Shown: positions 2,146-19,367 of the stretch, piece after piece | How positions within the stretch are numbered: the stretch's first letter is position 1 | Layout of the letters: every line of letters begins with the position of its first letter | Virus record (IMG/VR): IMGVR_UViG_3300034403_000064 | Coordinates: 1 to 26,615 of that record | Length of the DNA stretch: 26,615 nucleotides | Direction: 5' to 3' (one strand) | Source: a virus | Notes under the pieces: model-generated | What the model was told of the DNA's origin: nothing | Database searches by the model: none | The model's input: the letters and a program-made list of their open reading frames with translations, nothing else | Translations under genes and position numbers: made by a program

Positions 2146-2742
2146 TCATAAGTTGGCGAATGGTATATTCTTTGGATCTAAAGGTTCCCAGTATTCATAT
2201 GCATAAGTTACATCCACAGTGGCGGGTTCGTCATTTGAGTATGCATATGATATTGCTCCTATTGCAATAGGATACGCCTTATGAAATACCGCTGAACTAG
2301 ATACACTATCGTTTTCCGATAGAGTATCTATTCTTAATGTATTTATTGCAACTTCTTCATAATACATCATAGGTCTGAATTTACCATCTGCAGCATGAAC
2401 ATCTTTGGATGGGGAAATTTTATCAATACGACTCCAAATTTTGTCTCGCAACCAAAACGGATTGTTCGTATCTGTTAGTATCACAGTAAATGTTATATCT
2501 TCAAATGTTGTAGTATATGGTATTTTTCTGACAGGTCCAGTTCCGTCTATTATTTCGGTGGTTGATATAGAAATACCTGGCAAATCAAATGATTTTATAT
2601 ACATAACTGTATTATCGTTTGGGTTAACTGATCCAGAGAACACACTACTCCCTTCCTTCGAATTTATCGTTAATTGATATCGGTTTGTTTTAGTATGTGA
2701 TGATATCCTTGATATGAATTTGTCTAACTTCATATAATGCAT
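2146..2742 (-). CDS. Tail tube-fold protein, gp19/gp54-like (probable tube initiator at the baseplate)
   Basis: The product has 198 residues. It has the layout of the T4 gp19 tube family: an N-terminal helix, then beta strands including a KSFDLPGISI stretch where tube proteins carry the LPG motif, then a TFEDITFTVIL strand. It ends with a YAYEYWEPLD strand like the C-terminal ALDYWE of T4 gp19. The start at 2742 is supported by GGAG seven bases upstream; a second ATG three codons in is less likely. Because it sits next to gp26 rather than beside the sheath gene, it is more likely the gp54-type protein that starts the tube on the baseplate than the main tube subunit. T4 gp54 is longer (about 320 residues), so the exact orthology is uncertain. 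Confidence 0.75.
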   Translation of the reverse strand: MHYMKLDKFISRISSHTKTNRYQLTINSKEGSSVFSGSVNPNDNTVMYIKSFDLPGISISTTEIIDGTGPVRKIPYTTTFEDITFTVILTDTNNPFWLRDKIWSRIDKISPSKDVHAADGKFRPMMYYEEVAINTLRIDTLSENDSVSSSAVFHKAYPIAIGAISYAYSNDEPATVDVTYAYEYWEPLDPKNIPFANL

Positions 2743-2790
2743 ATTTATTCTCCATGAAAATTAGTTGTTATATTTTTTATCATAGTCTAT

Positions 2791-3363
2791 TCATACACCC
2801 CTATTCCAGATTTTAGATGGAGATGATTTTTTAAATTTTTGTACCGGTAAGAATATAGCTATATCCCATTCATTTGCTTCTATGTTCATTAAATTACTTC
2901 TTACATGTGAGATTAGATATTGTTTTACACATGGTTTTATTATATTATATTTAGATATTTTTTTTAATACGTTATATGATAGAGCCAGTTTCGTACTTCT
3001 GTCGTACCGGTTGTTATTTGTAATTGTTGATAGTGACTCCATTATAATCAACCGGTCTCTTGGAGAAACATAATGCAAATTAATTCCTAAAAACCCCCCC
3101 TTGTTAATGTCAACCACAAATATCAATGGGAACTCGTCATAGTAAGGCAATATCTTTGCGTGTTTTGGGCTGTAATAATAACAATACATTTTCCCGACAG
3201 TGATAGCAGAACTAAACCTTTCCTTGTCTAACATCAGGGTTGTTCTAGTTATACCAGATTGTCTTACTTTAGATCTGAACCACTCTCTAGCTTTATGTGT
3301 GTTTGCCTTTATTCCAGACGATGACAGTCGTTGTAGTAATTGTTTAAAATTAGTTTTACTCAT
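2791..3363 (-). CDS. Conserved T4-like phage protein, unassigned (possibly packaging or head related)
   Basis: The product has 190 residues and no signal peptide or membrane segment. The most distinctive block is GKMYCYYYSPKHAKILPYYD, followed by FPLIFVVD and GGFLGINLHYVSPRDR. Near the C-terminus, EWDIAIFLPVQKF precedes a final KIWNRGV. Proteins with the same blocks occur next to gp4 in T4-like marine phages; some may be annotated as the gp2 DNA end protector, but I cannot confirm that from the sequence. It starts inside the gp4 stop (ATGA overlap), so the two are translationally coupled and probably made together late in infection. There is a 48-base gap before the tube-like gene. The family is recognised, but its function is not. 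Confidence 0.7.
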   Translation of the reverse strand: MSKTNFKQLLQRLSSSGIKANTHKAREWFRSKVRQSGITRTTLMLDKERFSSAITVGKMYCYYYSPKHAKILPYYDEFPLIFVVDINKGGFLGINLHYVSPRDRLIIMESLSTITNNNRYDRSTKLALSYNVLKKISKYNIIKPCVKQYLISHVRSNLMNIEANEWDIAIFLPVQKFKKSSPSKIWNRGV

Positions 3364-3797
3364 AATATATGTTCTTCTGTTAGTATTTTAAATTCCCAGT
3401 TTCTTGTTTGACAATATTTTTGTGCGTATTGCCATTTTGAAGAGTTAACTGCCCATTTGCTCATTTCTGTTAAAAATGTTGTTCGTCGTTTCCTTTTCCC
3501 GTGTAACGGTTTAATTGTTTCTTTGTGTGGTTTTATTTCTATCATAATTATTTTGAATTGGTTTGTGTTGTCTTTAATTTTAATTAAAAAGTCTGGGTAA
3601 TATTTATGATATTTGTTGTCTATTGGTGATACATAGGGAACATATAATTCTTCAGAAGACCAAGACACTATATTGTTATTAGAGTCACAATATTTCATGA
3701 ATCGTTTTTCCCATGATGACCTGTATATAATGTTGTTTTTATTTCCTATATATTTATTAATATTTTTTAATTTGTATTTGCCTTTATAAAATCTCAT
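3360..3797 (-). CDS. 4: gp4 head completion protein
   Basis: The product has 145 residues, close to T4 gp4 (150). The N-terminal half contains IIYRSSWEKRFMKYCD followed by SWSSEELYVPYVSPID and HKYYPDF, which are hallmarks of the gp4 head-completion family. A PD-(D/E)xK nuclease-like pattern is visible: a possible Glu30, then PD at 68-69, then EIK at 87-89 on a following strand. This fits the proposed nuclease fold of the family. In T4 the protein completes the head after DNA packaging and before tail joining. Here it is the first gene of the minus-strand block. Its ATG has no clear ribosome binding site, but an exact late-promoter box lies 23 bases upstream. Confidence 0.92.
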   Translation of the reverse strand: MRFYKGKYKLKNINKYIGNKNNIIYRSSWEKRFMKYCDSNNNIVSWSSEELYVPYVSPIDNKYHKYYPDFLIKIKDNTNQFKIIMIEIKPHKETIKPLHGKRKRRTTFLTEMSKWAVNSSKWQYAQKYCQTRNWEFKILTEEHIL

Positions 3798-3820
3798 TGT
3801 ATTTAATTACTAAATATATA

Positions 3821-3828
3821 TATTTATA
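3821..3828 (-). promoter_or_regulatory. T4-type late promoter box TATAAATA for gp4 block
   Basis: Read on the minus strand, 3828-3821 is TATAAATA, an exact match to the T4 late -10 element. It is in the only sizeable divergent gap, 23 bases before the gp4 ATG, which is a good distance for a short leader. On the plus strand the same AT-rich patch gives only TATAAGAA (3825-3832, two mismatches) ahead of the gp48 gene, so the rightward promoter is less clear. Confidence 0.6.
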
Positions 3829-3863
3829 AGAATTAAATTTATTAGGATAGACAGGGGTGTTAA

Positions 3864-6278
3864 ATGGGAATGTCCATGGATGAAATATTATACGAGATTG
3901 ATTTTACTGATATCAATGACGCATTTGATGCTGGTGGTATCAATGTAGCAGAACTTAAATGGTATCTCGACGAGATATCTACTCAGGGAATCGATGCGCT
4001 CGTTGGTCCTGATGGTTCTTATAGTTGGGACCAATTTAAAAAAGATACGGGGATTGATAAATCCCAATTTATAGGTATGTCTTCAGACTATGGTTTAATT
4101 GAAGAGTATGAAGACTCTTTACCACATGGAGAAACGGCATCGAATAACTACTCTTCTTCGACTCAAGATCAGTTTGGAAAGAAAGGGGGGAGCGGTGGGG
4201 GAGGAGGTAACCCTGGGGTCAGTAATTCATCTCTTTTTCCTTCTTATAATACTCCGGTGGTTGCGCCATGGGAGGAATCTGGTTCAGATTTTTTTGATTC
4301 AAGTATTCAGACTTTTGATGACCCAGGTATTACCTTAGACCCTAGCATGGGATTTGTTAGTGCTGATGACTTAGTTGAAATATTTCCAGACCTTTTGAAA
4401 AGAGAAAATAATGAAACTCAGGAACCAAAATTAAATCTTAACGAAATTGCGACTATTATGAGCGATCTTTGGCGTTATGAGAGTAACGGTGATTTAGTGC
4501 AAGGTCAGATATTTGATGTTGAAAAATCCAATTATGCGGATGATATGGATGATGCTCGTGAAGAAGGGGCAGTTGATGCATATCAATTAAAGACAGGTTT
4601 GTCACAAGATCAGTTACAGTCAATGGCACAGGCTATGGGTATTATGTCTCACCGTGGTGGAGAAACGATTAGACTACCTGGTGGACCGATTCCGATGAAA
4701 TTTCCATTAGAAAAGACATTATCTAATGGACAGACTGTAGAGATAACAGAGTCAAAAGGAAGAGATTTTTATGAGGATAATTGGGGAGATACTGCTTTTG
4801 AAGAAACCGACGAATTTACGGTAGCACTTAAAGCAACCAATCCAAACATACCTCAACCGAATAATGATGCTAAGAAATATTCAACACCCGACACAGATAT
4901 TATTATGGTGCCGTTAGCAGACAATAACGGGAATATATCATTAGTAGCAATGCAAAAAGCAAAGGATACTCAGTCGTCTGCTGCAAAACAACTTGCGGCA
5001 GAGATTAATGCTCAGTCAACTGCCGCTGCATTAAGTGAGGTTAGAGGTAAAAATATTTCAGAACTGAATACAGTATTTCAAGGTTTAAATCAGCAACTAT
5101 CACCCAAACAGAATCCAAAAGATCAAACACTCGTTCCTCAACAATTTCACACCAAACCATTGCAACAAGCTATGCCAGGCATGCAGTCTTCTTTTAATCC
5201 ATCTACTAATGTTACTCGGACAACACAAACAAAAAGACCCTTCGTCAATACCCACGTTGAGAGAAAGGAAGCAAAAGCACAATTAACTAGTATAGATTCT
5301 TTGATGAATGTGACGCTGGCGCCACAAGATGGTACAGGTGTGACATTGGAATATCCAAGCGGTATTCAGAATCAAGCGGCGCCATATCTTGAATTTACAC
5401 CCATGTTTGGTGGCACAAAGGCGACTGGGTTCATGACAGAAGATTATAAAAAGGTTCTTAAACAGAATATACAAAATATAGCTAATGATGCGGTATCTGA
5501 TAATCTTCTAGAGAGCGTTTCAACAATTTTATCATCAGCAAATCCTTTTAGTTCTGCCGGATCGGCAATTATGGACACTGCTAAAGGTGCTGGAAAGTAT
5601 GTTGGGAGAGCTTTTAATAAGGTGATGCAGGAAAACCTTGGTGGACTTGGCACACGAAGTGCTGGTGATTTGGGTGCCACTATAGTATTATATGTACCAG
5701 AGGGATTTGAAATGGCAAATGAGGCGCAATGGGCGAGTGAGGACGGAAGTGTTATTAGAAATTGGATGGCAAATGTTAATACCCCCGGATCCAAATTTCC
5801 GACATCTGATGCGTTTAGTTCAGTTATGAAATCATTCGGTGACACATTTCAAGAAGGTGCTGGTAAAGATTTGCTGGCGGCTAGAGGATTAGCTAAAAAG
5901 AATAATAGGTCAGTTATGTTTAATGGAATTGGATTCAGAGAGTTTTCTATTAACTTTAATTTTGTCCCAAAGAGTGCTAACGAATATAACGACGTTAGAA
6001 AGATCATCACTAATTTTAGAAAATTAATGCTTCCAAAAAAACATGGTTCTGGGTCTACTCAGTGGGTATTGCCTGGATATTATAAAATCGATTTGCGGAA
6101 TACCGCACTTGTGTTTAATAGTTACTGGGTTTTAACTAATTGTCGAGTTGGTTATGGTTCAGAGGGGAGATTTAATGTAGCTGGGGAACAAGGCACACCA
6201 ACACAGATGTCATTACATTTATCCTTTATAGAAACTAGGCAACAACATATGGGCGATGTGGATCCTTCTGGTGTTTAA
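3864..6278 (+). CDS. 48: gp48-like baseplate tail tube cap with long N-terminal extension
   Basis: The product has 804 residues, more than twice T4 gp48 (about 364). The gp48-like part is about residues 540-804. It includes GATIVLYVPEGF near 610, then FREFSINFNFVPKS, VRKIITNFRKLMLP, and a C-terminal YWVLTNCRVGYGSEG leading to LHLSFIETR. This is the tube-fold layout of gp48/gp54. Residues 1-540 do not resemble T4 gp48: an acidic start with a GPDGSYSWDQF loop, a Gly-rich tract (about 103-113), an Ala/Gln-rich helix at about 370-395, and a Gln/Pro/Thr-rich linker. AGGGGTG upstream supports the start; Met3 and Met5 are close alternatives. The gene has visibly higher GC than its neighbours. It heads the rightward block and should close the tube on the hub. 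Confidence 0.82.
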   Translation: MGMSMDEILYEIDFTDINDAFDAGGINVAELKWYLDEISTQGIDALVGPDGSYSWDQFKKDTGIDKSQFIGMSSDYGLIEEYEDSLPHGETASNNYSSSTQDQFGKKGGSGGGGGNPGVSNSSLFPSYNTPVVAPWEESGSDFFDSSIQTFDDPGITLDPSMGFVSADDLVEIFPDLLKRENNETQEPKLNLNEIATIMSDLWRYESNGDLVQGQIFDVEKSNYADDMDDAREEGAVDAYQLKTGLSQDQLQSMAQAMGIMSHRGGETIRLPGGPIPMKFPLEKTLSNGQTVEITESKGRDFYEDNWGDTAFEETDEFTVALKATNPNIPQPNNDAKKYSTPDTDIIMVPLADNNGNISLVAMQKAKDTQSSAAKQLAAEINAQSTAAALSEVRGKNISELNTVFQGLNQQLSPKQNPKDQTLVPQQFHTKPLQQAMPGMQSSFNPSTNVTRTTQTKRPFVNTHVERKEAKAQLTSIDSLMNVTLAPQDGTGVTLEYPSGIQNQAAPYLEFTPMFGGTKATGFMTEDYKKVLKQNIQNIANDAVSDNLLESVSTILSSANPFSSAGSAIMDTAKGAGKYVGRAFNKVMQENLGGLGTRSAGDLGATIVLYVPEGFEMANEAQWASEDGSVIRNWMANVNTPGSKFPTSDAFSSVMKSFGDTFQEGAGKDLLAARGLAKKNNRSVMFNGIGFREFSINFNFVPKSANEYNDVRKIITNFRKLMLPKKHGSGSTQWVLPGYYKIDLRNTALVFNSYWVLTNCRVGYGSEGRFNVAGEQGTPTQMSLHLSFIETRQQHMGDVDPSGV

Positions 6279-6320
6279 TTTTTATACATTAGTGTGTAAT
6301 ATTGTAGAGAGTAATCAATT

Positions 6321-6947
6321 ATGTTCAATTATATTCCAAATTTAAAAAAACAAGTTCTTGTTTCAGGTACAGAATCTACTTATAACAAAGTTGATGATAT
6401 GTATATTAATTATGATAATATCCCCAGAAAGGTTAAGAATTTGTTTATAAAAGTTAAAGTTCCACAGACATACATCGATAATCCGTATACATGGGAATCG
6501 TGGTATGTTCGTGATGAAGATGACCCAGAAATTATAGCAGAGAAATACTATGGTGATTCTGGTTATTATTGGATCGTGTTATTGTTTAATAATATGATTA
6601 ATAAATATGATGATTGGCCGTTAAATGAAGAAAGTTTTAATAAAAAAATTATACGTGATTATGGCAGTCTTAGATATTCTATGATAATACCACATTGTTA
6701 TGTTAAGTTAACAAGCAGGGTTGTTGTTGATGAGTATAATAATAGTGAGACTATTGTTGATGAAGATTATAAAGTATCACCGTATACATATGAAAAGTTA
6801 AGTTTAAATGAACAGAATTCATTTAAACTGATTAGTAAATACGACTATAATTTTTCAAATAATGAAGAAAAGCGCAATATACGAGTTTTAAAACAAGATT
6901 CAATTCCTGAGTTTTTATCTGAATTTAAAAGAATGGTTGAATTATGA
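6321..6947 (+). CDS. 53: gp53 baseplate wedge protein
   Basis: The product has 208 residues; T4 gp53 has 196. The family pattern is clear: an opening FNYIPNL and a YVRDEDDPEIIAEKYYGDSG stretch with the LysM-like signature. YYWIVLLFNNMINKYDDWPL follows, then a segment ending HCYVKLT. In T4, gp53 is the last wedge subunit; it clamps neighbouring wedges and triggers wedge assembly around the hub. The gene follows gp48 after 42 bases and overlaps the next gene by four bases (ATGA), so hub and wedge parts are translated together. A GAGAG run lies about ten bases upstream of the ATG. Confidence 0.9.
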   Translation: MFNYIPNLKKQVLVSGTESTYNKVDDMYINYDNIPRKVKNLFIKVKVPQTYIDNPYTWESWYVRDEDDPEIIAEKYYGDSGYYWIVLLFNNMINKYDDWPLNEESFNKKIIRDYGSLRYSMIIPHCYVKLTSRVVVDEYNNSETIVDEDYKVSPYTYEKLSLNEQNSFKLISKYDYNFSNNEEKRNIRVLKQDSIPEFLSEFKRMVEL

Positions 6948-8206
6948 GTTTAAATACCGTTGGAGTATCATCTATACCTAAATCATTAGGAGATCATACG
7001 ATAGAGTTATTACAAATAACTTCTCATAATGGTAATGTTTTGGATCTTAGTAGCTCATATGAACAACTTATAATTTCAGAAGATATAATGATGTCTAGTA
7101 TTTCTGTTGATTTATATATTAATGACACTGAAGAAATAATATCAAATTTACCAATTATAGGACAAGAGCGTGTTATTATTAAATATAAAAGTGCGTTTTC
7201 TACTAGATATGTATATTTAAAATTATGGGTGTATATGATATCAGAGGTGGAAACTACCAGACATCAGTTGAATTATAAATTAAGTTTAGTTACATCTGAC
7301 CTTGTAAAAAATTATGAATATAAAATATCTAGATATTTTAGTAATGATGCGGCATCTATTGCATTAAAAATATTTGAAGAATTCAATGCAAGTAAGTCTT
7401 TAATCATAAGCAAAAGTGATGATAAACAAGAACTAGTAATTCCCAATATTGCACCATTTGCGGCAATACGTTGGTTGTCTACATTGGCATATAAGAGTGG
7501 GTCCACTGCTTATGTATTTTTTGAGAATAATAGGAATTATGTATTCAAACCAATAGAAGACTTGTTTTATCCGGAAAAAAAGGCGGAATATTATATTGGA
7601 GAGGTAGACCCCACAAATCTTATAACAAGTATTAATATAATAGATACGTGGAAAATAGTATCTAATTTTGATGTGTTGGGTAATATTATAGGGGGTATGT
7701 ACAATTCTACTAATATTAGTTGTGATATATTGTCTAGACAAGTTAATAAATCCACACATTCGTATTGGAAAAACTCAGAACAATATATTGAAAGTCGTGA
7801 TGGTGAATCTGCCAATAACCCCTTACTTGATAAATCTAACATATCAAAATCTAATGGATTACACCATAATCCCGAAATAATATCATATACCCCACACAAT
7901 AAATATAATAGTTATAATAGATCAGAGAATATATTATCTAGAGAATATGGGTTGCAATTATTTGATAATTTTAAAATAGAATTGAATGTGTTTGGTGATA
8001 CTAATATTGCAGTTGGTGATATCATAGGTATAGATTTACCACTTTTTAGAGAAAGTACTAGTAAGGAATCGTATAATAATCCGTCATATTATGGAAAATG
8101 GTTAATTATAAAGTTAACTCACAAGATGAGTAGTATGGGATATTATATGAAGATAACGGCAGTAAAAGATCGTACTGCTGTAACATTTCCGAAATTAAGG
8201 AGTTAA
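6944..8206 (+). CDS. 27: gp27-like baseplate central hub protein
   Basis: The product has 420 residues, close to T4 gp27 (391). The start resembles hub proteins of T4-like marine phages: an ELLQITSHNGNVLDL segment followed by strands around SEDIMMSSISVDLYIND. The middle part contains APFAAIRWLSTLAYKSGS followed by a YVFFENNRNYVFKPI strand pair, typical of the gp27/gp44-type hub fold. The C-terminal part has a VGDIIGIDLPLF strand and a GKWLIIKLTH strand, also typical of these hubs. It would form the trimeric ring carrying the gp5 spike, and the spike gene follows three bases later. The ATGA overlap with gp53 implies coupled translation. The assignment is by motif and order; divergence from T4 gp27 is large. 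Confidence 0.8.
   Translation: MSLNTVGVSSIPKSLGDHTIELLQITSHNGNVLDLSSSYEQLIISEDIMMSSISVDLYINDTEEIISNLPIIGQERVIIKYKSAFSTRYVYLKLWVYMISEVETTRHQLNYKLSLVTSDLVKNYEYKISRYFSNDAASIALKIFEEFNASKSLIISKSDDKQELVIPNIAPFAAIRWLSTLAYKSGSTAYVFFENNRNYVFKPIEDLFYPEKKAEYYIGEVDPTNLITSINIIDTWKIVSNFDVLGNIIGGMYNSTNISCDILSRQVNKSTHSYWKNSEQYIESRDGESANNPLLDKSNISKSNGLHHNPEIISYTPHNKYNSYNRSENILSREYGLQLFDNFKIELNVFGDTNIAVGDIIGIDLPLFRESTSKESYNNPSYYGKWLIIKLTHKMSSMGYYMKITAVKDRTAVTFPKLRS
8197..8202 (+). promoter_or_regulatory. Shine-Dalgarno AAGGAG for the TTG start of gp5
   Basis: AAGGAG followed by seven bases and TTG at 8210. It overlaps the end of the hub gene. It is among the best ribosome binding sites in the window and fixes a non-ATG start. 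Confidence 0.75.
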
Positions 8207-8209
8207 ATA

Positions 8210-9061
8210 TTGGACTATTTAGGAAAGGATAAATTTATTTGGTTTTATGGTGTTGTAGAAGATATTAATGACCCATTAAAAATAGGTAGATGTAGGGTTC
8301 GTATATTGGCGGCACATACCCACGATTCTTCTATTTTACCAACAGATGGACTACCATGGGCATCACCAATCATGCCAATTACCTCAGCATCTATTGCTGG
8401 TGTTGGTATATCGCCCACTGGAATATTAGTTGGTGCGTGGGTTGTGGGATTTTTTATTGACAGCATAGGTAATCAGGAACCAGTTCTTTTTGGTACAATT
8501 CCTGGTATACCTAAATCACCAGATATCACGACAGTTAAATTTGGTGATACTGGCAATAAATATCCATCTTTGAACGAAACTCCGATACATAATTCTGTTG
8601 TTGGTGAGTCAGATGTTAATAGATTGTCTAGGGGGGATAAAACTTCTGATACTATTGTTAAAGATAAGATTGATTCTGTTGTTTCTAATGCATTGTTTAA
8701 AGAACCCACAACTAAATATAAGACAATATATCCATATAATAAAGTTATTAGTACTGAATCTGGACATCATCAAGAATTTGATGATACTCCTGGTGGAGAA
8801 CGTATACATACTTATCATAGAAGTGGATCATTTGAAGAATATCATCCAAATGGAGATAGGGTTACTAAAATAATTGGGGACGATTATGAGATTATTAAAG
8901 GGGATAAGAACATGCATATAGAAGGTAATATCAATATAGTAGTTTCTGGTGATTGTAATATTAAAGTTAAGGGCGTTTGGGATTCGGATGTTAGTGGGAA
9001 ATATATAAATATTAGTAATGAGAGTATTGTGTTACGTGCTCCAAAAATAAATTTAAATTAA
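8210..9061 (+). CDS. 5: gp5-like baseplate spike protein lacking the lysozyme domain
   Basis: The product has 283 residues. Residues about 8-100 are the gp5 OB-fold: FYGVVEDINDPLKIGRCRVR, then PWASPIMPI and a GAWVVGFFID strand, ending GTIPGIP. After a linker come TESGHHQEFDDTPGGERIHT and EEYHPNGD, the entry to the beta-helix seen in gp5 and VgrG spikes. Short beta-helix repeats follow (IEGNINIVVSGDCNIKVKG) to the end. The lysozyme domain that T4 gp5 (575 residues) carries between these parts is absent, as is usual in marine T4-like phages. The start is TTG, forced by AAGGAG seven bases upstream and by the lack of an ATG before the conserved OB-fold. It trimerises on the gp27-like hub as the membrane-piercing spike. 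Confidence 0.88.
   Translation: MDYLGKDKFIWFYGVVEDINDPLKIGRCRVRILAAHTHDSSILPTDGLPWASPIMPITSASIAGVGISPTGILVGAWVVGFFIDSIGNQEPVLFGTIPGIPKSPDITTVKFGDTGNKYPSLNETPIHNSVVGESDVNRLSRGDKTSDTIVKDKIDSVVSNALFKEPTTKYKTIYPYNKVISTESGHHQEFDDTPGGERIHTYHRSGSFEEYHPNGDRVTKIIGDDYEIIKGDKNMHIEGNINIVVSGDCNIKVKGVWDSDVSGKYINISNESIVLRAPKINLN
9004..9011 (+). promoter_or_regulatory. Candidate late promoter box TATAAATA upstream of gp25
   Basis: An exact T4 late -10 match lies inside the last codons of gp5, 54 bases before the gp25 ATG. The genome is AT-rich, so chance is possible, but only four exact plus-strand copies were found by eye in the window, and two of them sit 52-54 bases before a baseplate gene start. Confidence 0.35.
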
Positions 9062-11450: not shown

Positions 11451-14400
11451 ATGGACACTTCTAAATTAAAATGGTTGACAGATGACATATCAGAACAAAT
11501 TCCGTCTTGGATGCGTGAGTCTGGTGAATATAACACATATATTGAATTTTTAGAATTATATTATGAATGGATGGCACAAGATGGTAATCCATTAGGGGTT
11601 TCTGCTGGATTATTACAAGATTCTGATATAGATAATGTTTCTCATTTATTTGGCCAATATTATATTAAAGAAATGGCATTTGATATGCCAACAGTTATTA
11701 CTATTAATAATAGTATAGATGAAACGAATGAAAGTAATACTCGTAGAAATAAATTAAATTTAAGAAATCGTGAAAGTTCTACGGTAACATATTCTTCTGA
11801 TAATTTTGTCGGAAATGGTGTAGTTTCTCAATTCAATTTATCACATTATGAACCTTCATATTATAACGATAAAAGTTTTTTACAAAAAGTAGATGATATT
11901 TCAGTATATATTAATCCAGATTTAAATTCTTTTTTTATACCTATTGATGTAAATGGCATACCACTACTTTCTAATCAAGTAAATACAACTACTGTTCCAT
12001 TATATAATGAAATTGATACATTTGTGTCAAGATCTTCTTCAGATATTTCCGAATTTATTAACGAACTTCGATTTAACCCTTCTAACATTATTATTGAATA
12101 TCCTAGATTTGAATTTGTTCTTGGACAATTGGGGTCGTTATATGAAGTTATTGTTATATATCCATCATATGGGTGGACGGATGGTGTATATGCTCTTAAT
12201 GTTGGGGGGTTCGATGGTAACGACGGACAAGGTGGGATACTTGAAGTTACAGTAATATCTGGTAGTATTACATCCCCGATTATAATAGAGAACGGGTCTG
12301 GATATAATCAAAGTTCATCATCATTACGTGTTGATTTTTTAAATAAATTAAATATGCATGGTGGTTTTGGAATATCAACTAACTATAGTATTTTACCTAA
12401 ATTCAAATTTGAGATTGAAAATTCTTCAGGAGCATTGACTTCTGTCATGATTGATGATGAAGATGAGACATTAATAAGTGGTGCTAGTTTATATAATGTT
12501 GGGCATTCTTTAACTCCAGGAAAATATATTGTAGAGGTGGAAGATATTGATGGAATCGGGAGAGATGGTCAAATTGAATTTAATGTTTCCGAATCTAAAT
12601 CAGTTAATGAGGTAAGTATTATAGAACCTGGAGATTCGTATCATCTTCCTATTATAACACAATATATCAGAAATTATATATTCTATGGCAATGGCAACGC
12701 GGTCGGGAATGAAGAACATATCTTTACTATTGGTAGTGTGTCAGATCCTCTCATGTCTATTCTTTATTTATCTAATATAAAATTAGACTTATTTGATAAT
12801 AATATTAAATTATTTGTCAAATTTGATAATGGGGTCAACAAGTCATGTACTGTGTCTGGATATAATACACAAAGTTCGTGTCAATTAAATGGCGGTTTGT
12901 GGGAAGTTCCTTATATCAATATTACTAATATTAATAATGATATACATGTTCCTGTAGGAACAGTCTTTATGATGTTTAAAGTTGAAGTATTGGATGGTGG
13001 GGTATTTAACAATTTAATATTTGATATGAAATATGATATGTCTAGTGGTGATTTTGTAAAACTACCTAATGATTATTATAACATAGAAGACGGTATAATC
13101 GTTTTTAAAGATCCTATAAATGAGACAAGATGGATTCCTAAATCACAGACAGTAGTTCGTGTTCTTTATAGAATATCAACAACATATATTAGTAAAACTG
13201 AGATAGAAAGACGTTCTAATACTAATAGTGATAATATTAAAGTTGTTGCAGACAGGTCTAAACTTATAAAGTTTATGAAGACATTTTATTCTAACAAAGG
13301 AACGGAACAGTCATATAAATTTTTATTTAATCTTTTTTTCCAAAAAGATGTTGACTTTTTTTATCCAAGTAAATATACTTTTAAGCCAAGTGATAATACA
13401 TGGGAAATACAACAAAGTATACGATGTGTGCCATTTATAGATAGATATAGTGTTGCTGTTAATTATAATGATGAAACATATAACCCTAAATTGGTGGTTG
13501 GCAATATTAGTGGTTCTGTGGCAACTATAGACAGACATCTTTCATATTATATCGAGCTTAGTCCAGTAGAGGAATATTTCATTTCTAATATGGTTGGTAG
13601 ATTTATTAAAGGGGAATCCGTAACAATAACGGATAATGATAATAATTCGTTTACTGAAAGTTTATATGTAGTTATATCCTCAATTGATGTTATTCATGGT
13701 GGAAGTGGTTATAATGTTGGAGAATCACTTGCATTTAATATGATAGATCCGGGCAGTGGTAGTGGATTTGATTGTCATGTTGCATCTGTTAGAGTTGGTT
13801 CTGTTGACGGTGTTGTTGTGGAATCTGCTGGCGAGAATTATATTACAGGTGAAGTGTTGGAATTCAATGAGTTGGGCACTGGCGGTACTGGTGTTTTTGG
13901 TGTTATATCTAGTTGTACTAATAGTGCCGAATATATTTCTATGAAATGGGTACAAGATAGTTATGCTAGAACTCACTCATATAATATTGGATATCATAAT
14001 AAAATATATAATTCTGAGATTTCTACTGAGGTTGAAGTTATTATATCCAATGCGGATGATAAATATGATGATAATATTTTACTTTTAGATTTTCAAACTA
14101 ATGCTTTACTTGGTGGCACCTTTTATAATTTTGGTGGTAATAATTTTATAGACTATGCTAATGACTTAATTATAGAAAAGAATTCAATTCTTTTAGGGTC
14201 ATTTGGAAATCACGATAGTGTCTGTGGAGTTATTCAGAATCATCGAGTTGACCCAATATTATCATCAATATCCCCCGATTTATTTTTTGCCAATGGTTCA
14301 CTTGATATAGTCTCATGCCAAATACCATCAAACTTTGATCAGTTAACGTTTGTAAATGGATATGGATTAAGAAGTGGCAATTATTATGTGTCAATTTCTA

Positions 14401-17400
14401 ATAGCAATACTAGTACAAGAGGTAAATTTTCGCCAGCATATATACCAGTATCAGTATATACTGATATTGAAAGCTTTAGTAATCCATCATCAACTTATGG
14501 CATATCAGTAGTGACTATATTACCTCATTCTGGGACAGAACCTGCTATATGGATTAGCGGGTTTAATATTGATACCGAGAATTATATAGTAGATTATAAT
14601 GATATACCTGCGGAATATTTTATGGTTTATACGAACAGTTCTATCAGTTATGAACGTATTGATACGAACATGTTAAATAGTCATTCATGTTTAGTTGCTA
14701 ATGGCAAATACATACCTTCTACTGGATCTGATGAAAATTATCATGTGTTTGATAAAACAGAACATATGACTTTTGGAGATGATGGCGATGGGTATGTTAA
14801 AATTAATGGTGTTGGTGAATTGCTATCACCAGAATTTAATGCGGCAGATGATAAAACTTATAAGTTTACTATAGATTTTTGGTATCATCCAAATTTTAAT
14901 TATAATTTAAATCCGCCTAATTGGTCAGATGAGGAAGTTATTTTTTCATTGGCATCACAATATATTAGTGAAACCCCAAATAAACTGACATTAGTACAAA
15001 GAGAGTTTAATGATAAATTGAAGTTTGTTTTAGTTCTTGGACCAGAAGGACATCAAACAGAACTTTCTATGGATATGGAAGATGCTGGTGTTATTGATTA
15101 TGATAATGTTGAAGTTTCAGACAGTGGTTGGATTCATATTACGGTAGAAATTGATTTCCAATCTAGTGTGGCAAGTTTATATTTAAATGGTAAAGCCACT
15201 TCAATGACATATTTGAAGTCGTTTGTTATAACAGATGGTGGTGAACTCTATACATGTAATATAACAGAAGGCCCGTATGCTAATGATTGGCAAAGTATGG
15301 TTTATAGTTGGGATAATGCGATTAGTGCTGTTATTCATGAGATTAATTCTATAAATGATTCTAATATAACTTCAAAGGACGATGCGTTAATGTTGTTTTT
15401 ACAGGAGTCGGTGAACGGCGTTGTAAGGTATGATATTAATGAAAATTCTGATACTTCAGATGATATTGATATTATAACTGAGATGTTAAATTCTAAAAAA
15501 TATTATTGGGCATTTTATATTAATATCATATCAGAGATGTTAACTAGAAGTGAGTTTGATAAATATTTTATTACTGAAGGTACTCATTTAGAAGATGAAT
15601 TTCTGATTGGAGCAAGACGTTCAATTGTTTCTGAAACAATTGATGGTGAGATAACCATACCAACAGAATCTACTACTCATTGTAATGGTGACTTTGCAAC
15701 GTTTAGAATAACAAAAGGACATAGATTTGACAAACTTCCAGATGATACAGAGGATACGAATAATTATCTAAGGATGTGGTCTTCTAATCCTATGATTCAT
15801 AGTAGAATTATTAATTCAAACGAATATTCTATTAATGACCCAATATTGGACGAAAACACCGGACTATATTCTGATTCTTATATAACTATATATAAGAATA
15901 TTAATAGAATAAATCCAGTTATGTCAGACCTACATTTTGATTATTGGGAAGAGACTGATACAGATGAGAAACTTGGTAGGTTAAAAGAAACACCATCTAA
16001 TGGTAAATTGTGGTCGGATATCGTTTTTTCTAATGGGTATGGATTAGTAAGTGGGGTGTATCATGTTATTATTTCTTCTAAATCTCATTTTGGAATACCG
16101 GAATTATTTGGTGCTGCTAAAATACCAGTAAATGTTGTATTAGACGTTACTACTGGAGTATCAACAATAACAATAATATTACCAGTTGGTGGTGATATTA
16201 GTTTTTGGACATTTGGCGCCGAGGTAAAATGGGAGGTACAAAACCATAATGTTGATTATTATTTATTAAAAGATATAAAAGAACATAATAATGTATATAC
16301 AGATATTAATAATATCTGGGATGATGGCACTAAAGAAGGACATATACGTATTCCTTTAATGTTGCCGGATTGGTATACCGTATCATTAAAATATCATAAT
16401 CTATCTGTTGGGGGGATTTCTTCATTACATCTGTATAGTAGTGGAAGCGGATATAAAACTTTGCCTAGTGTGGGTGTTTCTGGTAAGAGTGGTGATTATG
16501 TTTCTAAAGGTAGTGGTGCGATTTTAAGATGTGTGTCAGACGATATAGGTGGGATTTCTACGGTTGTTATAGGTAGTTATGTTCCTGGTTTGGCGAACAG
16601 ATGGAATGATTTTGGCATTGGATATGAAGTTAAACCTATTTTGGATTTGGTGAGTAAGGGTAATGGGAATGCTGAAATAAAATTAAATAATGGAATCGTT
16701 TGCTCACGTGTAGGATATAGTTTATCAGAAAAAGATTCAATGCCATCTAATTCTGTGAAATGTCAAGATAGTATGTTATGGCAAGATTATTCGTATGTGT
16801 TACGTAGTACGGTAACTATTGATAAATGGCGAGATATAATTAAAAAAGTTATCCATCCAGCTGGATTTGAAGTGTTTGGGGAGTTTGTATTAGAGACCGA
16901 TACGTTCATAAGATCAAGTAAAACTAAGGGCGTTCCATATTTAAGATTTAATATAATTAAAAACGTTGAAATCACTGTTGATGTTATGGATGGTTTGGGG
17001 GTATGGACAAAAGGACTTGAAAAGGATGATATATCGGGAGATATTGTTTATAAAACAGATGTTGTTAATGTTAATAATCTCTATTCTGGTGGACATCATA
17101 ATACAGTTAGATATGATAATCTTCAATCAACTATGTTAGGGCTCAAATCTGGCGTTGATGTTGATAGTGACCCCTCTAACAACATTTATTATCCTGATCA
17201 CCGCCTAGGTGCAGGTCGATATGCCCTCTTCAGTGCCCATCATCTAGATACAGTCAACAGTCCTGGGTTTATTCTGACCCACTCTTCAGGTTTTGAAGTC
17301 AAAATTGATTTAAAACGCACTTTCGGTCCTTACCGCCGAATTCATCTTGATTCTAGGAAACCCGACGTTTTAGAGTTACATCAAGTCTATGGGCATGCGG

Positions 17401-19367
17401 CTGATCCAGAAGATTTAAATGGTATTAAGATTCAAGTGACATTTGACAATAAAGTATCTTGGGTTGATCTCGACCGCGGGTCTCCTGTTGAAGTCCCAGA
17501 TTATAATGCTGGTTTTGCGAAGGTTAGAATAACTGAAATACCAATAGGCACTTCTTTTAATTATGTAGATATATTGCGATGGTCTCATGACTTTGGCATT
17601 GGTGGTTCATATGCGTCTGATATTAATGTTATATATTATGACAGTTCTCTAGACGAGAGTAATTCGGTAGATAACATGTCTTGGTCAGATGTTAGATTTG
17701 TTGGTGTGAATCACATATCATATATTAGTAATTATTTCACAAAATATCGTGATACTAATGTGGATAAAAATGAATATGATATGGTTGATTTTTACAATGA
17801 TGATATTATTGGAACAAATTTCACTATATTCAAAAACAGAAGTGTTATGAATTATAATACAAGTTCTTGGAATTGGGGTAAATTTATTATTGTAGGTATT
17901 GAGTATCATCAAGATGATAAATATATAATATTTACAGTTAAACATATTGAAAGTAGTGGTAATATACCAATAGGAGAAGGTGCAGGTGGTTATTATGGTG
18001 AAAATAGTAGCGCATATGATTATCCTAATGATGTTGAATTCAGGTTTGATAGCATAAGCAGAAGTGGTGTTGATGAAAGTTCTAATTTTTGGGTTGGCAG
18101 CCAAAGATCTGGGTCAGATGTACGTGACGATAAAATGGTTATTAGACTTCATAAATATTGGGAAGATGTTCCGTCTTTGGGTGTTACATCTAAATCGTTA
18201 GAACGAACTAAATTTAGATTTTTGGGTGGAAATGAATATAGGGACGTTCTTAGTCATAGATTCACAGACCCAGATGAAATATTGGTATCACCACATTTAA
18301 ATTATAGACCAGAATCAGCAATTATGGTTAATGGTGAACGAATATATACTGGATATAAGAAACTTTATGATTCAAGAGTAGTTGTTGATATATCTTTAGA
18401 TGAAGATGGAGATGGTAATAGTAGTGAACGTTTGTGGTCTTCTCATATAGTTTCTCATGCATGGAAATATAATAATGTTGATACTAGTAAAATCATAACC
18501 GCCGTTAACTTAGAAATCCAACAACATATAGGTGGTTACGATCCCATTGATTATGAATTAAATGAGTTTTTGCAAGAAAAAATCGATGGGGTTGCTAGAT
18601 GGGATGTTAATAATAGCGGTAGTATCTCGTTGAGAGATATGCATATAATTGAACTTCATAATTTAAATATAGAAGAATCGCAATTAGTAATTGATGTCAT
18701 ACTTAATCCGATATTACAATCTGATAGATTTGACCATTATATATATAAGAGTCAAGGTATTACTGATTATACTGATCATTTATGGCCAACCACATCAATA
18801 CAATCATTAGAATCTATGTATGACCGCAATTATCATGCTGTTATTGATTCTGCATTATCTATAAGACCGAAACGATTATTTATTACATTAGAAAATAATA
18901 ATAATACAAAGAATGCAATTACGTTGGGTATGAATTGGAAAGGTTTAGAACGAATGAAGTTTTATAATACACCACAATGGTATATAGATAATGAGATGTT
19001 TGGTGTTACTCAAGATATGATAGAATCCAACTTTCATAAAAGAATAAATATAGGACACGAACCAGTGGTTTTTATTTCAAAAGTAAATACTAGCATTTCA
19101 TCTAATGTAAATGATATGTGTCATTTCAGCAATGGACAGATAGATATCCTTTTCGAATTGGTGCAAAGCAGAATATCTACGCATAATGATTCTCGGTCTC
19201 AAGGTGGAGACCCACCACTTGGATTTTTATCCTCAGTTGATAACAGCCAATATGGTGATGATTGGGAGAATATATATAATGATGCACTGCGTTATGCTTT
19301 TAGTATTATGAAAATGGAACGAGTATATAATAGTGATATAAATAATAGAAAAGAGTTGATAGATTAA
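11451..19367 (+). CDS. 7: Giant gp7-like baseplate wedge protein with large insertions
   Basis: The product has 2638 residues; T4 gp7 has about 1032. Three gp7 blocks remain in order. YIEFLELYYEWM (30-41) is one. FYSNKGTEQSYKFLF (612-626) matches the FYSTKGIEASYKFLF region of T4. DKWRDIIKKVIHPAGF (1791-1806) matches WKSDVIRFVHPVGF. Position between gp6 and gp8 agrees. Extra material: beta-rich Gly domains (about 200-400 and 745-820), a Cys-pair motif (465-485), a LamG-like domain (1133-1260), repeated NGYGLxSG modules (about 967-1040, 1526-1600), repeated FLQE...DGV modules with dockerin-like loops (1316-1340, 2373-2396), and about 830 residues after HPAGF. There is no ribosome binding site before the ATG, which lies four bases after gp6. 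In T4, gp7 starts wedge assembly and runs to the baseplate rim; the insertions here may form peripheral host-binding parts. Confidence 0.85.
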   Translation: MDTSKLKWLTDDISEQIPSWMRESGEYNTYIEFLELYYEWMAQDGNPLGVSAGLLQDSDIDNVSHLFGQYYIKEMAFDMPTVITINNSIDETNESNTRRNKLNLRNRESSTVTYSSDNFVGNGVVSQFNLSHYEPSYYNDKSFLQKVDDISVYINPDLNSFFIPIDVNGIPLLSNQVNTTTVPLYNEIDTFVSRSSSDISEFINELRFNPSNIIIEYPRFEFVLGQLGSLYEVIVIYPSYGWTDGVYALNVGGFDGNDGQGGILEVTVISGSITSPIIIENGSGYNQSSSSLRVDFLNKLNMHGGFGISTNYSILPKFKFEIENSSGALTSVMIDDEDETLISGASLYNVGHSLTPGKYIVEVEDIDGIGRDGQIEFNVSESKSVNEVSIIEPGDSYHLPIITQYIRNYIFYGNGNAVGNEEHIFTIGSVSDPLMSILYLSNIKLDLFDNNIKLFVKFDNGVNKSCTVSGYNTQSSCQLNGGLWEVPYINITNINNDIHVPVGTVFMMFKVEVLDGGVFNNLIFDMKYDMSSGDFVKLPNDYYNIEDGIIVFKDPINETRWIPKSQTVVRVLYRISTTYISKTEIERRSNTNSDNIKVVADRSKLIKFMKTFYSNKGTEQSYKFLFNLFFQKDVDFFYPSKYTFKPSDNTWEIQQSIRCVPFIDRYSVAVNYNDETYNPKLVVGNISGSVATIDRHLSYYIELSPVEEYFISNMVGRFIKGESVTITDNDNNSFTESLYVVISSIDVIHGGSGYNVGESLAFNMIDPGSGSGFDCHVASVRVGSVDGVVVESAGENYITGEVLEFNELGTGGTGVFGVISSCTNSAEYISMKWVQDSYARTHSYNIGYHNKIYNSEISTEVEVIISNADDKYDDNILLLDFQTNALLGGTFYNFGGNNFIDYANDLIIEKNSILLGSFGNHDSVCGVIQNHRVDPILSSISPDLFFANGSLDIVSCQIPSNFDQLTFVNGYGLRSGNYYVSISNSNTSTRGKFSPAYIPVSVYTDIESFSNPSSTYGISVVTILPHSGTEPAIWISGFNIDTENYIVDYNDIPAEYFMVYTNSSISYERIDTNMLNSHSCLVANGKYIPSTGSDENYHVFDKTEHMTFGDDGDGYVKINGVGELLSPEFNAADDKTYKFTIDFWYHPNFNYNLNPPNWSDEEVIFSLASQYISETPNKLTLVQREFNDKLKFVLVLGPEGHQTELSMDMEDAGVIDYDNVEVSDSGWIHITVEIDFQSSVASLYLNGKATSMTYLKSFVITDGGELYTCNITEGPYANDWQSMVYSWDNAISAVIHEINSINDSNITSKDDALMLFLQESVNGVVRYDINENSDTSDDIDIITEMLNSKKYYWAFYINIISEMLTRSEFDKYFITEGTHLEDEFLIGARRSIVSETIDGEITIPTESTTHCNGDFATFRITKGHRFDKLPDDTEDTNNYLRMWSSNPMIHSRIINSNEYSINDPILDENTGLYSDSYITIYKNINRINPVMSDLHFDYWEETDTDEKLGRLKETPSNGKLWSDIVFSNGYGLVSGVYHVIISSKSHFGIPELFGAAKIPVNVVLDVTTGVSTITIILPVGGDISFWTFGAEVKWEVQNHNVDYYLLKDIKEHNNVYTDINNIWDDGTKEGHIRIPLMLPDWYTVSLKYHNLSVGGISSLHLYSSGSGYKTLPSVGVSGKSGDYVSKGSGAILRCVSDDIGGISTVVIGSYVPGLANRWNDFGIGYEVKPILDLVSKGNGNAEIKLNNGIVCSRVGYSLSEKDSMPSNSVKCQDSMLWQDYSYVLRSTVTIDKWRDIIKKVIHPAGFEVFGEFVLETDTFIRSSKTKGVPYLRFNIIKNVEITVDVMDGLGVWTKGLEKDDISGDIVYKTDVVNVNNLYSGGHHNTVRYDNLQSTMLGLKSGVDVDSDPSNNIYYPDHRLGAGRYALFSAHHLDTVNSPGFILTHSSGFEVKIDLKRTFGPYRRIHLDSRKPDVLELHQVYGHAADPEDLNGIKIQVTFDNKVSWVDLDRGSPVEVPDYNAGFAKVRITEIPIGTSFNYVDILRWSHDFGIGGSYASDINVIYYDSSLDESNSVDNMSWSDVRFVGVNHISYISNYFTKYRDTNVDKNEYDMVDFYNDDIIGTNFTIFKNRSVMNYNTSSWNWGKFIIVGIEYHQDDKYIIFTVKHIESSGNIPIGEGAGGYYGENSSAYDYPNDVEFRFDSISRSGVDESSNFWVGSQRSGSDVRDDKMVIRLHKYWEDVPSLGVTSKSLERTKFRFLGGNEYRDVLSHRFTDPDEILVSPHLNYRPESAIMVNGERIYTGYKKLYDSRVVVDISLDEDGDGNSSERLWSSHIVSHAWKYNNVDTSKIITAVNLEIQQHIGGYDPIDYELNEFLQEKIDGVARWDVNNSGSISLRDMHIIELHNLNIEESQLVIDVILNPILQSDRFDHYIYKSQGITDYTDHLWPTTSIQSLESMYDRNYHAVIDSALSIRPKRLFITLENNNNTKNAITLGMNWKGLERMKFYNTPQWYIDNEMFGVTQDMIESNFHKRINIGHEPVVFISKVNTSISSNVNDMCHFSNGQIDILFELVQSRISTHNDSRSQGGDPPLGFLSSVDNSQYGDDWENIYNDALRYAFSIMKMERVYNSDINNRKELID
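14349..14566 (+). repeat. NGYGLxSG module, copy 1 (within gp7)
   Basis: Residues about 967-1040 contain FVNGYGLRSGNYYVSIS, an IPVSVYTD strand, and a VVTILP strand followed by a Trp-containing strand. Copy 2, 1.7 kb downstream, has the same order. The similarity is at protein level; the DNA has diverged, so the duplication is old. Confidence 0.6.
15396..15478 (+). repeat. Dockerin/EF-hand-like module, copy 1 (within gp7)
   Basis: FLQESVNGVVRYDIN begins at residue 1316 and is followed by an acidic Asn/Asp/Ser loop (1328-1340) that could bind Ca2+. Flanking helices on both sides also resemble copy 2 at 18567. The loop is one residue shorter than the canonical dockerin loop. Confidence 0.6.
16026..16215 (+). 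repeat. NGYGLxSG module, copy 2 (within gp7)
   Basis: Residues about 1526-1590 contain FSNGYGLVSGVYHVIIS, an IPVNVVLD strand and a TIILP strand, followed by SFWTFG. The order of elements matches copy 1. Confidence 0.6.
17161..17520 (+). other. GC-rich, C-ending-codon island inside gp7
   Basis: Counting by eye, 154 of 360 bases are G or C (about 43%), against 28 of 120 (about 23%) at 17701-17820 just downstream. Codons ending in C (CCC, CTC, CGC, GCC, CAC, ACC) are frequent here and rare elsewhere in the gene. The reading frame stays open throughout, covering residues about 1904-2023, which include GYGHA-like and YRRIHLDSRKPDVLELH segments. It looks like a segment acquired from a different source. 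Confidence 0.6.
18567..18656 (+). repeat. Dockerin/EF-hand-like module, copy 2 (within gp7)
   Basis: FLQEKIDGVARWDVN begins at residue 2373. The loop DVNNSGSISLRD (2385-2396) fits the dockerin Ca-binding pattern D-x-N-x-(D/S)-G-x-I-x-x-x-D exactly. Confidence 0.7.
19337..19344 (+). promoter_or_regulatory. Candidate late promoter box TATAAATA upstream of gp8
   Basis: An exact T4 late -10 match lies in the last codons of gp7, 52 bases before the gp8 ATG. The spacing is almost the same as for the box before gp25. Confidence 0.4.

What the first reader, a model, noticed from the sequence alone, without database searches (positions are those of the whole stretch)
3864..5480. gp48 with a 540-residue N-terminal extension and raised GC
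Only the last third resembles the tube cap. The extension is Gly-, Gln- and Pro-rich with an EF-loop-like GPDGSYSWDQF near residue 53. Sample lines of the gene count 43-47% GC, against about 22% in a gp6 sample. An added or fused gene is possible. The tube cap faces the tape measure and hub, so the extension might replace a missing hub protein.
Basis: partly seen in the sequence, partly recalled or inferred. Interest (0 to 1): 0.5.

Follow-up and report, generated by a model that had tools for sequence, protein, structure and literature searches.

The report
Tube-cap protein with long variable arm
In a group of uncultured T4-like phages, the protein that caps the tail tube carries a very long front arm whose length differs even between near relatives; it is a lineage-specific elaboration of a known part, and its job is not known.

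Summary
The ORF at 3864-6278 (804 aa) is a T4-type gp48 tube cap (PHROG 230, E 9e-21). Fold comparison of a low-confidence model places the cap at residues ~491-796, so the extension is ~490 residues, not 540. The raised GC is real but weaker than stated (39.3% against 31.6%), equal in extension and core, mostly amino-acid composition, and recurs in relatives: no mark of a foreign fused gene. The extension was found only in one clade of uncultured phages and varies in length: 804, 689, 651, 474, 465, 462 aa, against 210-467 aa in the 14 phage records and nine contigs I looked at outside it. Residues 1-89 are a predicted-helical module homologous to the N-termini of short clade members. One relative, whose other ten compared neighbour genes are 94-99% identical except one tube-like gene (81%), lacks it and starts gp48 at residue ~154. 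No separate gene for the extension was found in 12 records or the phage collection. Residues 1-153 are therefore dispensable in a relative and unlikely to replace a hub protein. Most likely mechanism (inferred): six flexible arms bracing the tube-hub-wedge junction, as proposed for the helix-rich domain of Mu's tube initiator.

The parts
3864..6278 (+). gp48-type baseplate tail tube cap gene, 804 aa
   Evidence: ORF; PHROG 230 E 9e-21; between gp4/gp2 and gp53 as in other T4-like phages
3864..4130 (+). N-terminal module, residues 1-89, predicted helical, shared with L014 and with the N-termini of the short clade members
   Evidence: Alignment A8; hhalign E 3e-6 to the L017/L019 module; helices 5-11, 14-20, 28-41, 55-62, 66-75, 78-85 in a model of mean pLDDT 60
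4131..4322 (+). Gly/Ser-rich linker, residues 90-153
   Evidence: up to 75% G/S/P/Q/N/T in a 20-residue block; pLDDT 22-34 in the ten-residue blocks 91-160
4323..4688 (+). Second, mostly helical segment, residues 154-275; the gp48 of L002 starts at its beginning
   Evidence: 77% identity to L002; helices in a low-confidence model; weak likeness to module 1 (hhalign E 0.001; 2 of 200 and 1 of 200 column shuffles reach the score)
4689..5333 (+). Fast-diverging region, residues 276-490: predicted strands 283-364, helices 372-411, Gln/Pro/Thr/Asn-rich linker about 412-463
   Evidence: 71% aa identity to L002 and 34% to L014; low-confidence model
5334..6278 (+). Tube-cap core, residues 491-804
   Evidence: VIA-align Z 10.9 to 9f4a_BK (Klebsiella phage KP1 baseplate) and Z 10.6 to 5iv5_BE (T4 baseplate), from a model of mean pLDDT 37; A10
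2146..2742 (-). Tail-tube-like protein, possibly a second tube initiator (gp54-like, by position); least conserved gene after gp48 against L002 and L014
   Evidence: PHROG 45 E 6e-20, Pfam gp19 below its cutoff; 80.5% and 65.6% identity

Best explanation
Shown: the gene encodes a T4-type gp48 tube cap (residues ~491-804) behind a ~490-residue N-terminal arm made of a module of predicted helices (1-89), a Gly/Ser linker, a second mostly helical segment, a fast-diverging region and a Gln/Pro-rich linker. In the collections searched the arm occurs in one clade of uncultured T4-like phages, and near relatives carry it at different lengths. Inferred: gp48 forms a six-copy ring between hub and tube (from T4), so the virion would carry six flexible acidic arms. 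They most likely lie outside the tube ring, filling or bridging the space between hub, tube initiator and wedges, and act as an accessory brace or latch that stabilises the junction and tunes its release on contraction. The nearest precedent is the extra helix-rich domain on the tube initiator of phage Mu. Probability: anatomy about 0.9; bracing mechanism about 0.4.
For: PHROG 230. Fold match to T4 and KP1 baseplate chains over 491-796. Length series in the clade against 210-467 aa in the records looked at outside it. Module homology. A 651-aa gp48 without the module in L002, whose DNA is identical to the window for 28 bases from the ATG with 1 mismatch in the 109 bases upstream; there a 38-codon ORF ends in ATGA onto the shorter gp48. 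Against L014 the least conserved of ten proteins are gp48 (57%), the tube-like protein (66%), gp25 (80%) and gp53 (87%); the other six are 92-98%, so proteins expected to meet at the junction diverge together. Mu precedent: PMC11915804, abstract and passages. Lumen argument: six 53.6-kDa arms would fill about 310 A of a 40-A channel (my arithmetic; channel width recalled).
Against: No structure or binding evidence places the arm: the full model has mean pLDDT 37, the module model 60 with no PDB match at E <= 0.001. This phage already has a gp53 homologue, and T4 gp53 carries a LysM domain like the gap-filling protein of A-1(L) (PMC10966104, passage), so a further brace is not obviously needed. 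Divergence against L002 is partly mosaic: synonymous divergence is also high in gp2, gp4 and gp5 (0.58, 0.24, 0.18). PHROG 230 has 628 positions, so long members may exist elsewhere in the family; I looked at 14 of the 339 phage records that match the core.
Confidence: 0.45

Rival explanations
1. The arm is a fast-evolving, largely disordered accessory tail with little function of its own, tolerated because the baseplate has room; its length changes by recombination and slippage.
For: Large length changes between near relatives; low-complexity linkers; pLDDT under 50 for 621 of 804 residues, though this includes much of the real core; dN/dS 0.70 and 1.32 against L002 for 154-275 and 276-490, against 0.13-0.25 in gp6 and gp7.
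Against: Of the eight searched records in which the gp48 start is present, seven carry the module at that place and one (L002) lacks it; ten positions are invariant in the six rows of A8. dN/dS against L002 is 0.70-1.44 in gp26, gp27, gp53 and the tube-like protein too, and gp48 is 0.42 against L014, so the ratio is not special.
Confidence: 0.3
2. The arm is an assembly extension: it binds the tape measure protein or chaperones ring assembly, and may be removed by proteolysis.
For: gp48 and gp54 form the platform for tube polymerisation, next to the tape measure (PMC3004832, passages). The arm is acidic with flexible linkers (pI 4.3).
Against: Only two loose matches to a T4 prohead-protease-like motif (recalled), at 294 and 548, neither near residue 490. 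The protein at the tape-measure position has a 95% identical N-terminal part in L002 although L002 lacks residues 1-153.
Confidence: 0.15
3. A separate gene was fused to gp48 and supplies a missing hub or cell-envelope function.
For: The gp5 homologue has only the OB domain above the Pfam cutoff and 283 aa; residues 1-153 are absent from L002. Contact of gp27 or gp48 with the inner membrane has been raised as a possibility for T4 (PMC7600766, passage).
Against: No Pfam match above cutoff and no PHROG match in the extension alone; no separate homologue; no GC step at the junction; residues 1-153 are dispensable in L002.
Confidence: 0.06

Closest known systems
T4 gp48 (baseplate tail tube cap) and the corresponding chain of Klebsiella phage KP1 (9f4a_BK)
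   Same: Core fold over 491-796 (Z 10.6 and 10.9); PHROG 230; neighbours gp4 and gp53. The listing does not name the chains; I take 5iv5_BE as gp48 because its residue numbers reach 358.
   Different: The T4 chain aligns from residue 32 and T4 gp48 is 39.7 kDa (PMC3004832, table passage); here 490 residues precede the core and the protein is 87.7 kDa
Mu gp43, tube initiator with a helix-rich domain (PMC11915804, abstract and passages)
   Same: Tube-fold ring protein with an extra helical part. A chain of a Mu baseplate entry (9ki1_0, not named in the listing) aligns at Z 5.9 over the tube fold.
   Different: Mu's extra domain includes a LysM module joined by a flexible loop; here no LysM was detected and there are several segments. 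Homology of the extra parts was not tested.
gp48 of HTVC008M, P-SSM2, S-PM2 and other marine T4-like phages
   Same: Same family and similar gene neighbourhood
   Different: 383, 386 and 332 aa; the extension as query has no match in the phage collection at E 10

Membership tests
T4-type gp48 baseplate tail tube cap | Sequence family match | tested here: met
   PHROG 230, E 9e-21, residues 353-800; six clade relatives also match
T4-type gp48 baseplate tail tube cap | Tube-type fold shared with a T4 baseplate-tube chain | tested here: met
   Z 10.6 over 148 residues, rmsd 4.0, to 5iv5_BE; the model is low confidence and the chain is taken as gp48 from its numbering
T4-type gp48 baseplate tail tube cap | Gene order gp4 - gp48 - gp53 - gp27-position protein - gp5 | tested here: met
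T4-type gp48 baseplate tail tube cap | Six-copy ring at the tube-hub junction | not testable with these tools
   Needs a virion structure
T4-type gp48 baseplate tail tube cap | Size near that of most members looked at (not a defining feature) | tested here: not met
   804 aa; 14 phage records and nine contigs outside the clade are 210-467 aa, chosen by me from 339 matching records and three scans; PHROG 230 itself has 628 positions
   No match to a loop pattern written from memory, in 804 residues
LysM-bearing tube initiator (Mu gp43 type) | LysM domain in the extra part | tested here: not met
   No LysM match in Pfam for the whole protein at E 1 or for residues 1-89 and 153-489 at E 10
LysM-bearing tube initiator (Mu gp43 type) | Extra domain bridges hub and wedge | not testable with these tools
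   Needs a virion structure

The most novel reading that the evidence does not exclude
In this clade the tube-cap ring carries six long, module-built arms that form an extra layer between hub, tube initiator and wedges, and whose length is tuned by gain and loss of a helical module: an evolvable contraction latch that I did not see described for other T4-like phages in the searches made.
Probability: 0.2. Interest if true: 0.55.

Novelty: new variant of a known kind. Interest (0 to 1): 0.3.

Why it matters
The tube cap sits where tube, hub and sheath meet. A natural series of arms of different length on one conserved cap, down to a relative without the first module, offers a ready experiment on what may be added to or removed from this ring. 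If the arm is only decoration, the case is still a caution: the GC rise that suggested a foreign gene is mostly amino-acid composition.

Tried and rejected
Fusion of a neighbouring cyanophage gene: seven proteins encoded just upstream of gp48 (P-SSM2, AG-345-O18, S-SRM01, ACG-2014f, two of S-SKS1, gp2 of S-PM2) compared with the module, the second segment and the whole extension gave a best hhalign E of 0.043 (seven columns), no phmmer match and only blastp hits of E 0.3 or worse.

PDB sequence hits of the module profile to TAL-effector repeats (whole-sequence E 1e-5 and 0.0025) were rejected: the score is a sum over many repeats, and the best single repeat scores under 4 bits. Only the listing was seen; nothing was fetched.

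Internal duplication (module 1 and residues 154-275): suggestive only (hhalign E 0.001; 2 of 200 and 1 of 200 column shuffles reach the score; one of those shuffles gave an odd score of 136 that I cannot explain). The A8 profile search at E 1 does not pick the second segment.

A weak A8 match (E 0.005, 12.7 bits) in a 3344-aa frame of the 42-kb contig of L018 was not followed.

One scan of genome contigs with gp48 found no confirmed relative (54 pattern matches), so no host link. A viral scan with residues 1-154 alone confirmed none of 7 pattern matches although L014 carries the module, so that scan missed a true relative: exact peptide patterns limit it, and the clade may be larger than shown.

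A local hmmsearch with the A7 profile printed no rows, for a reason I did not find. The gp48 genes of L022, L051, L053 and L055 therefore rest on position and alignment A10; those of L052, L054 and L056 on position and likeness to these; L032 and L033 on tblastn.

Module fold: no PDB match (best Foldseek E 3.4) from a model of mean pLDDT 60; this does not show a new fold. Parts of the arm other than the module were not folded alone.

Positive selection is not claimed: dN/dS above 1 rests on few changes and also appears in gp53 and the tube-like protein.

Full report
What is there. The window is a 26,615-base IMG/VR virus record. Family searches match a T4_baseplate (gp26-type) protein, a tail-tube-like protein, gp2, gp4, gp48, gp53, a 'tail protein' at the gp27 position, gp5 (OB domain), gp25, gp8 and a large wedge-like protein at the gp7 position; gp6 is named by position, no family search was run on it. 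The reported gene runs 3864-6278 and encodes 804 aa. PHROG 230, baseplate tail tube cap, matches residues 353-800 at E 9e-21; Pfam has no match at E 1.

Where the cap begins. In alignment A10 (11 tube caps) a YP pair at window residues 497-498 is invariant near the start of the shared part. AlphaFold2 on seven clade sequences gave a poor model (mean pLDDT 37). Even so, Foldseek's first six rows are KP1 and T4 baseplate or tail chains, one of them at E <= 0.001, and VIA-align placed model residues 491-796 on residues 32-344 of 9f4a_BK (Z 10.9, rmsd 4.3, 142 aligned) and 32-358 of 5iv5_BE (Z 10.6, rmsd 4.0, 148 aligned); after a second KP1 entry (Z 10.2) the next row has Z 7.4. The chains are not named in the listing; numbering to 358 fits T4 gp48. 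So the extension is about 490 residues, where that T4 chain has 31 before the aligned part.

GC. The interval 3864-5480 has 39.3% GC, the window 31.6%. The other twelve genes compared have 31.2% together. With their codon usage the amino acids of gp48 alone predict 37.0%; the observed value is 39.4%, the same for 1-490 and 491-804. GC3 is 28% in gp48, 30% in gp2 and 25% in gp4 and the tube-like gene, against 16-21% in gp26, gp53, gp27, gp5, gp25, gp6, gp7, gp8 and the last gene. The gp48 genes of L002, L014, L019 and L029 are also 40.6-43.3% GC. There is no compositional step between extension and core.

Relatives. Scans with gp48, gp6 and gp4 found contigs of the same clade. Their gp48 lengths are 804 (window), 689 (L014), 651 (L002), 474 (L029), 465 (L016 and L017), 462 (L019) and at least 444 (L031, cut by the contig end). 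L003 matches the window at 100% over residues 589-804, where the contig ends; L045 holds a 137-aa start like L017's. Outside the clade I looked at 14 records of the phage collection (HTVC008M 383, S-SSM4 341, Va1 281, Moby 263, phiM9 263, S-PM2 332, AG-345-O18 467, P-SSM2 386, K444 342, OLIVR5 271, S-SKS1 210, S-SRM01 299, ACG-2014f 319, Bue1 319 aa) and contigs L022, L032, L033, L051-L056 (333-426 aa, several near-duplicates). The 210-aa value may be a mis-called start. These 14 are a choice out of 339 records matching the core, and PHROG 230 has 628 positions, so other long members may exist.

The N-terminal module. Residues 1-89 align with L014 (64%) and with the N-termini of L017, L019, L029 and L031 (26-28%) in A8; profile comparison with the L017/L019 module gives E 3e-6. 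A profile search of 12 records, the window included, finds the module at the start of gp48 in 7, a weak match elsewhere in one (L018's contig) and none in four (L002's 115-kb contig, and those of L011, L013, L015). The contigs of L011, L013, L015 and L018 begin or end, by the position of gp48 or gp6 in them, on the wrong side of the gp48 start. So of eight records that hold that start, seven have the module and L002 lacks it.

The relative without the module. In L002 the DNA is identical to the window for 28 bases from the ATG, with 1 mismatch in the 109 bases upstream. After that it differs: the old start opens a 38-codon ORF whose TGA overlaps the ATG of a 651-aa gp48 that begins at window residue ~154 and is 78% identical from there on; an AGGAG stands upstream of that ATG. 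Loss in L002 is the simpler reading, since L014 and the short relatives have the module. Of eleven other genes compared between window and L002, ten are 93.6-99.3% identical in protein and the tube-like one is 80.5%. A near relative thus does without residues 1-153.

Divergence. Against L002 the least conserved proteins are gp48 (78%) and the tube-like protein (80.5%); against L014, gp48 (57%), the tube-like protein (66%), gp25 (80%) and gp53 (87%), the other six 92-98%. These are proteins expected to meet at the tube-hub-wedge junction (T4 knowledge; PMC3004832, passages). Synonymous divergence against L002 is patchy: 0.58 in gp2, 0.24 in gp4, 0.18 in gp48 and gp5, 0.10 in the tube-like gene, against 0.02-0.07 in the others, so part of the difference is mosaic. 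dN/dS is not decisive: 0.85 for gp48 against L002, but 0.70-1.44 in gp26, gp27, gp53 and the tube-like gene; 0.42 for gp48 against L014.

No separate gene, no known domain. The extension has no match in 50,697 phage records at E 10; residues 1-89 and 153-489 have none in PHROGs at E 1 and only hits below cutoff in Pfam at E 10. In the 12 records it is found only within gp48.

Mechanism. In T4, gp48 and/or gp54 sit between gp27 and the tube, six copies each, and travel with the tube tip on contraction (PMC7600766, passages). Six arms of 53.6 kDa would fill about 310 A of a 40-A channel (width recalled), so outside the ring is more likely. For Mu the abstract says that the tube initiator gp43 stabilises the wedge-hub connection and mediates contraction, and the discussion postulates that its helix-rich domain takes over functions of a gap-filling protein (PMC11915804). 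I take bracing or latching of the junction as most likely, at about 0.4; this step is inference. Other baseplate proteins here are also large: the gp7-position protein is 298 kDa against T4's 119, gp8 65 against 38, while gp53, gp27, gp25 and gp6 are of T4 size and gp5 is half, so the long cap may be one element of a partly enlarged baseplate.

Literature. Seven full-text searches (of I saw 10 of 11 and 10 of 31 listed) gave listings in which I saw no account of a long N-terminal arm on a T4-type gp48. I read passages of six papers (PMC11948020, PMC3004832, PMC10457771, PMC7600766, PMC10966104, PMC11915804). I did not look up the original T4 baseplate structure papers.

Noticed in passing
window 11451-19367: A 2638-aa protein at the gp7 position (PHROG baseplate wedge match at 599-801), GC up to 39% near 17101-17700, with stretches that read by eye like dockerin or EF-hand loops (DVNNSGSISLRDMH, DINENSDTSDDID); residues about 1752-1844 match three PHROGs named for other virion parts, which suggests a shared mobile domain.
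   Followed up: no
window 8210-9061: gp5 homologue of 283 aa: OB domain above the Pfam cutoff, needle repeat below it, no lysozyme domain in Pfam, although its PHROG families are named hub and tail lysozyme; about half the mass of T4 gp5.
   Followed up: partly
window 2146-9061 against L002: Patchy synonymous divergence (gp2 0.58, gp4 0.24, gp48 and gp5 0.18, beside 0.02-0.07 in other genes), pointing to exchange of alleles.
   Followed up: partly
L057:426-773, L010:2045-2443, L060:404-805: A small gene between gp4 and gp48 in cyanophages (T4-GC 8 in P-SSM2) contains a stretch (YxFxYNxKTP..YDxxPL......GFxGxNFHW) that looks by eye like the core of gp2, the DNA end protector.
   Followed up: no
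L002:816-4964, L014:1-1799, L019:1-1278: The protein at the tape-measure position (1382 aa in L002) has no Pfam or PHROG match; frames opposite it in L014 and L019 show short repeats.
   Followed up: no
window 21251-26615: 1788+ aa protein of PHROG 358 (unknown function, E 3e-269), open at the end of the record.
   Followed up: no
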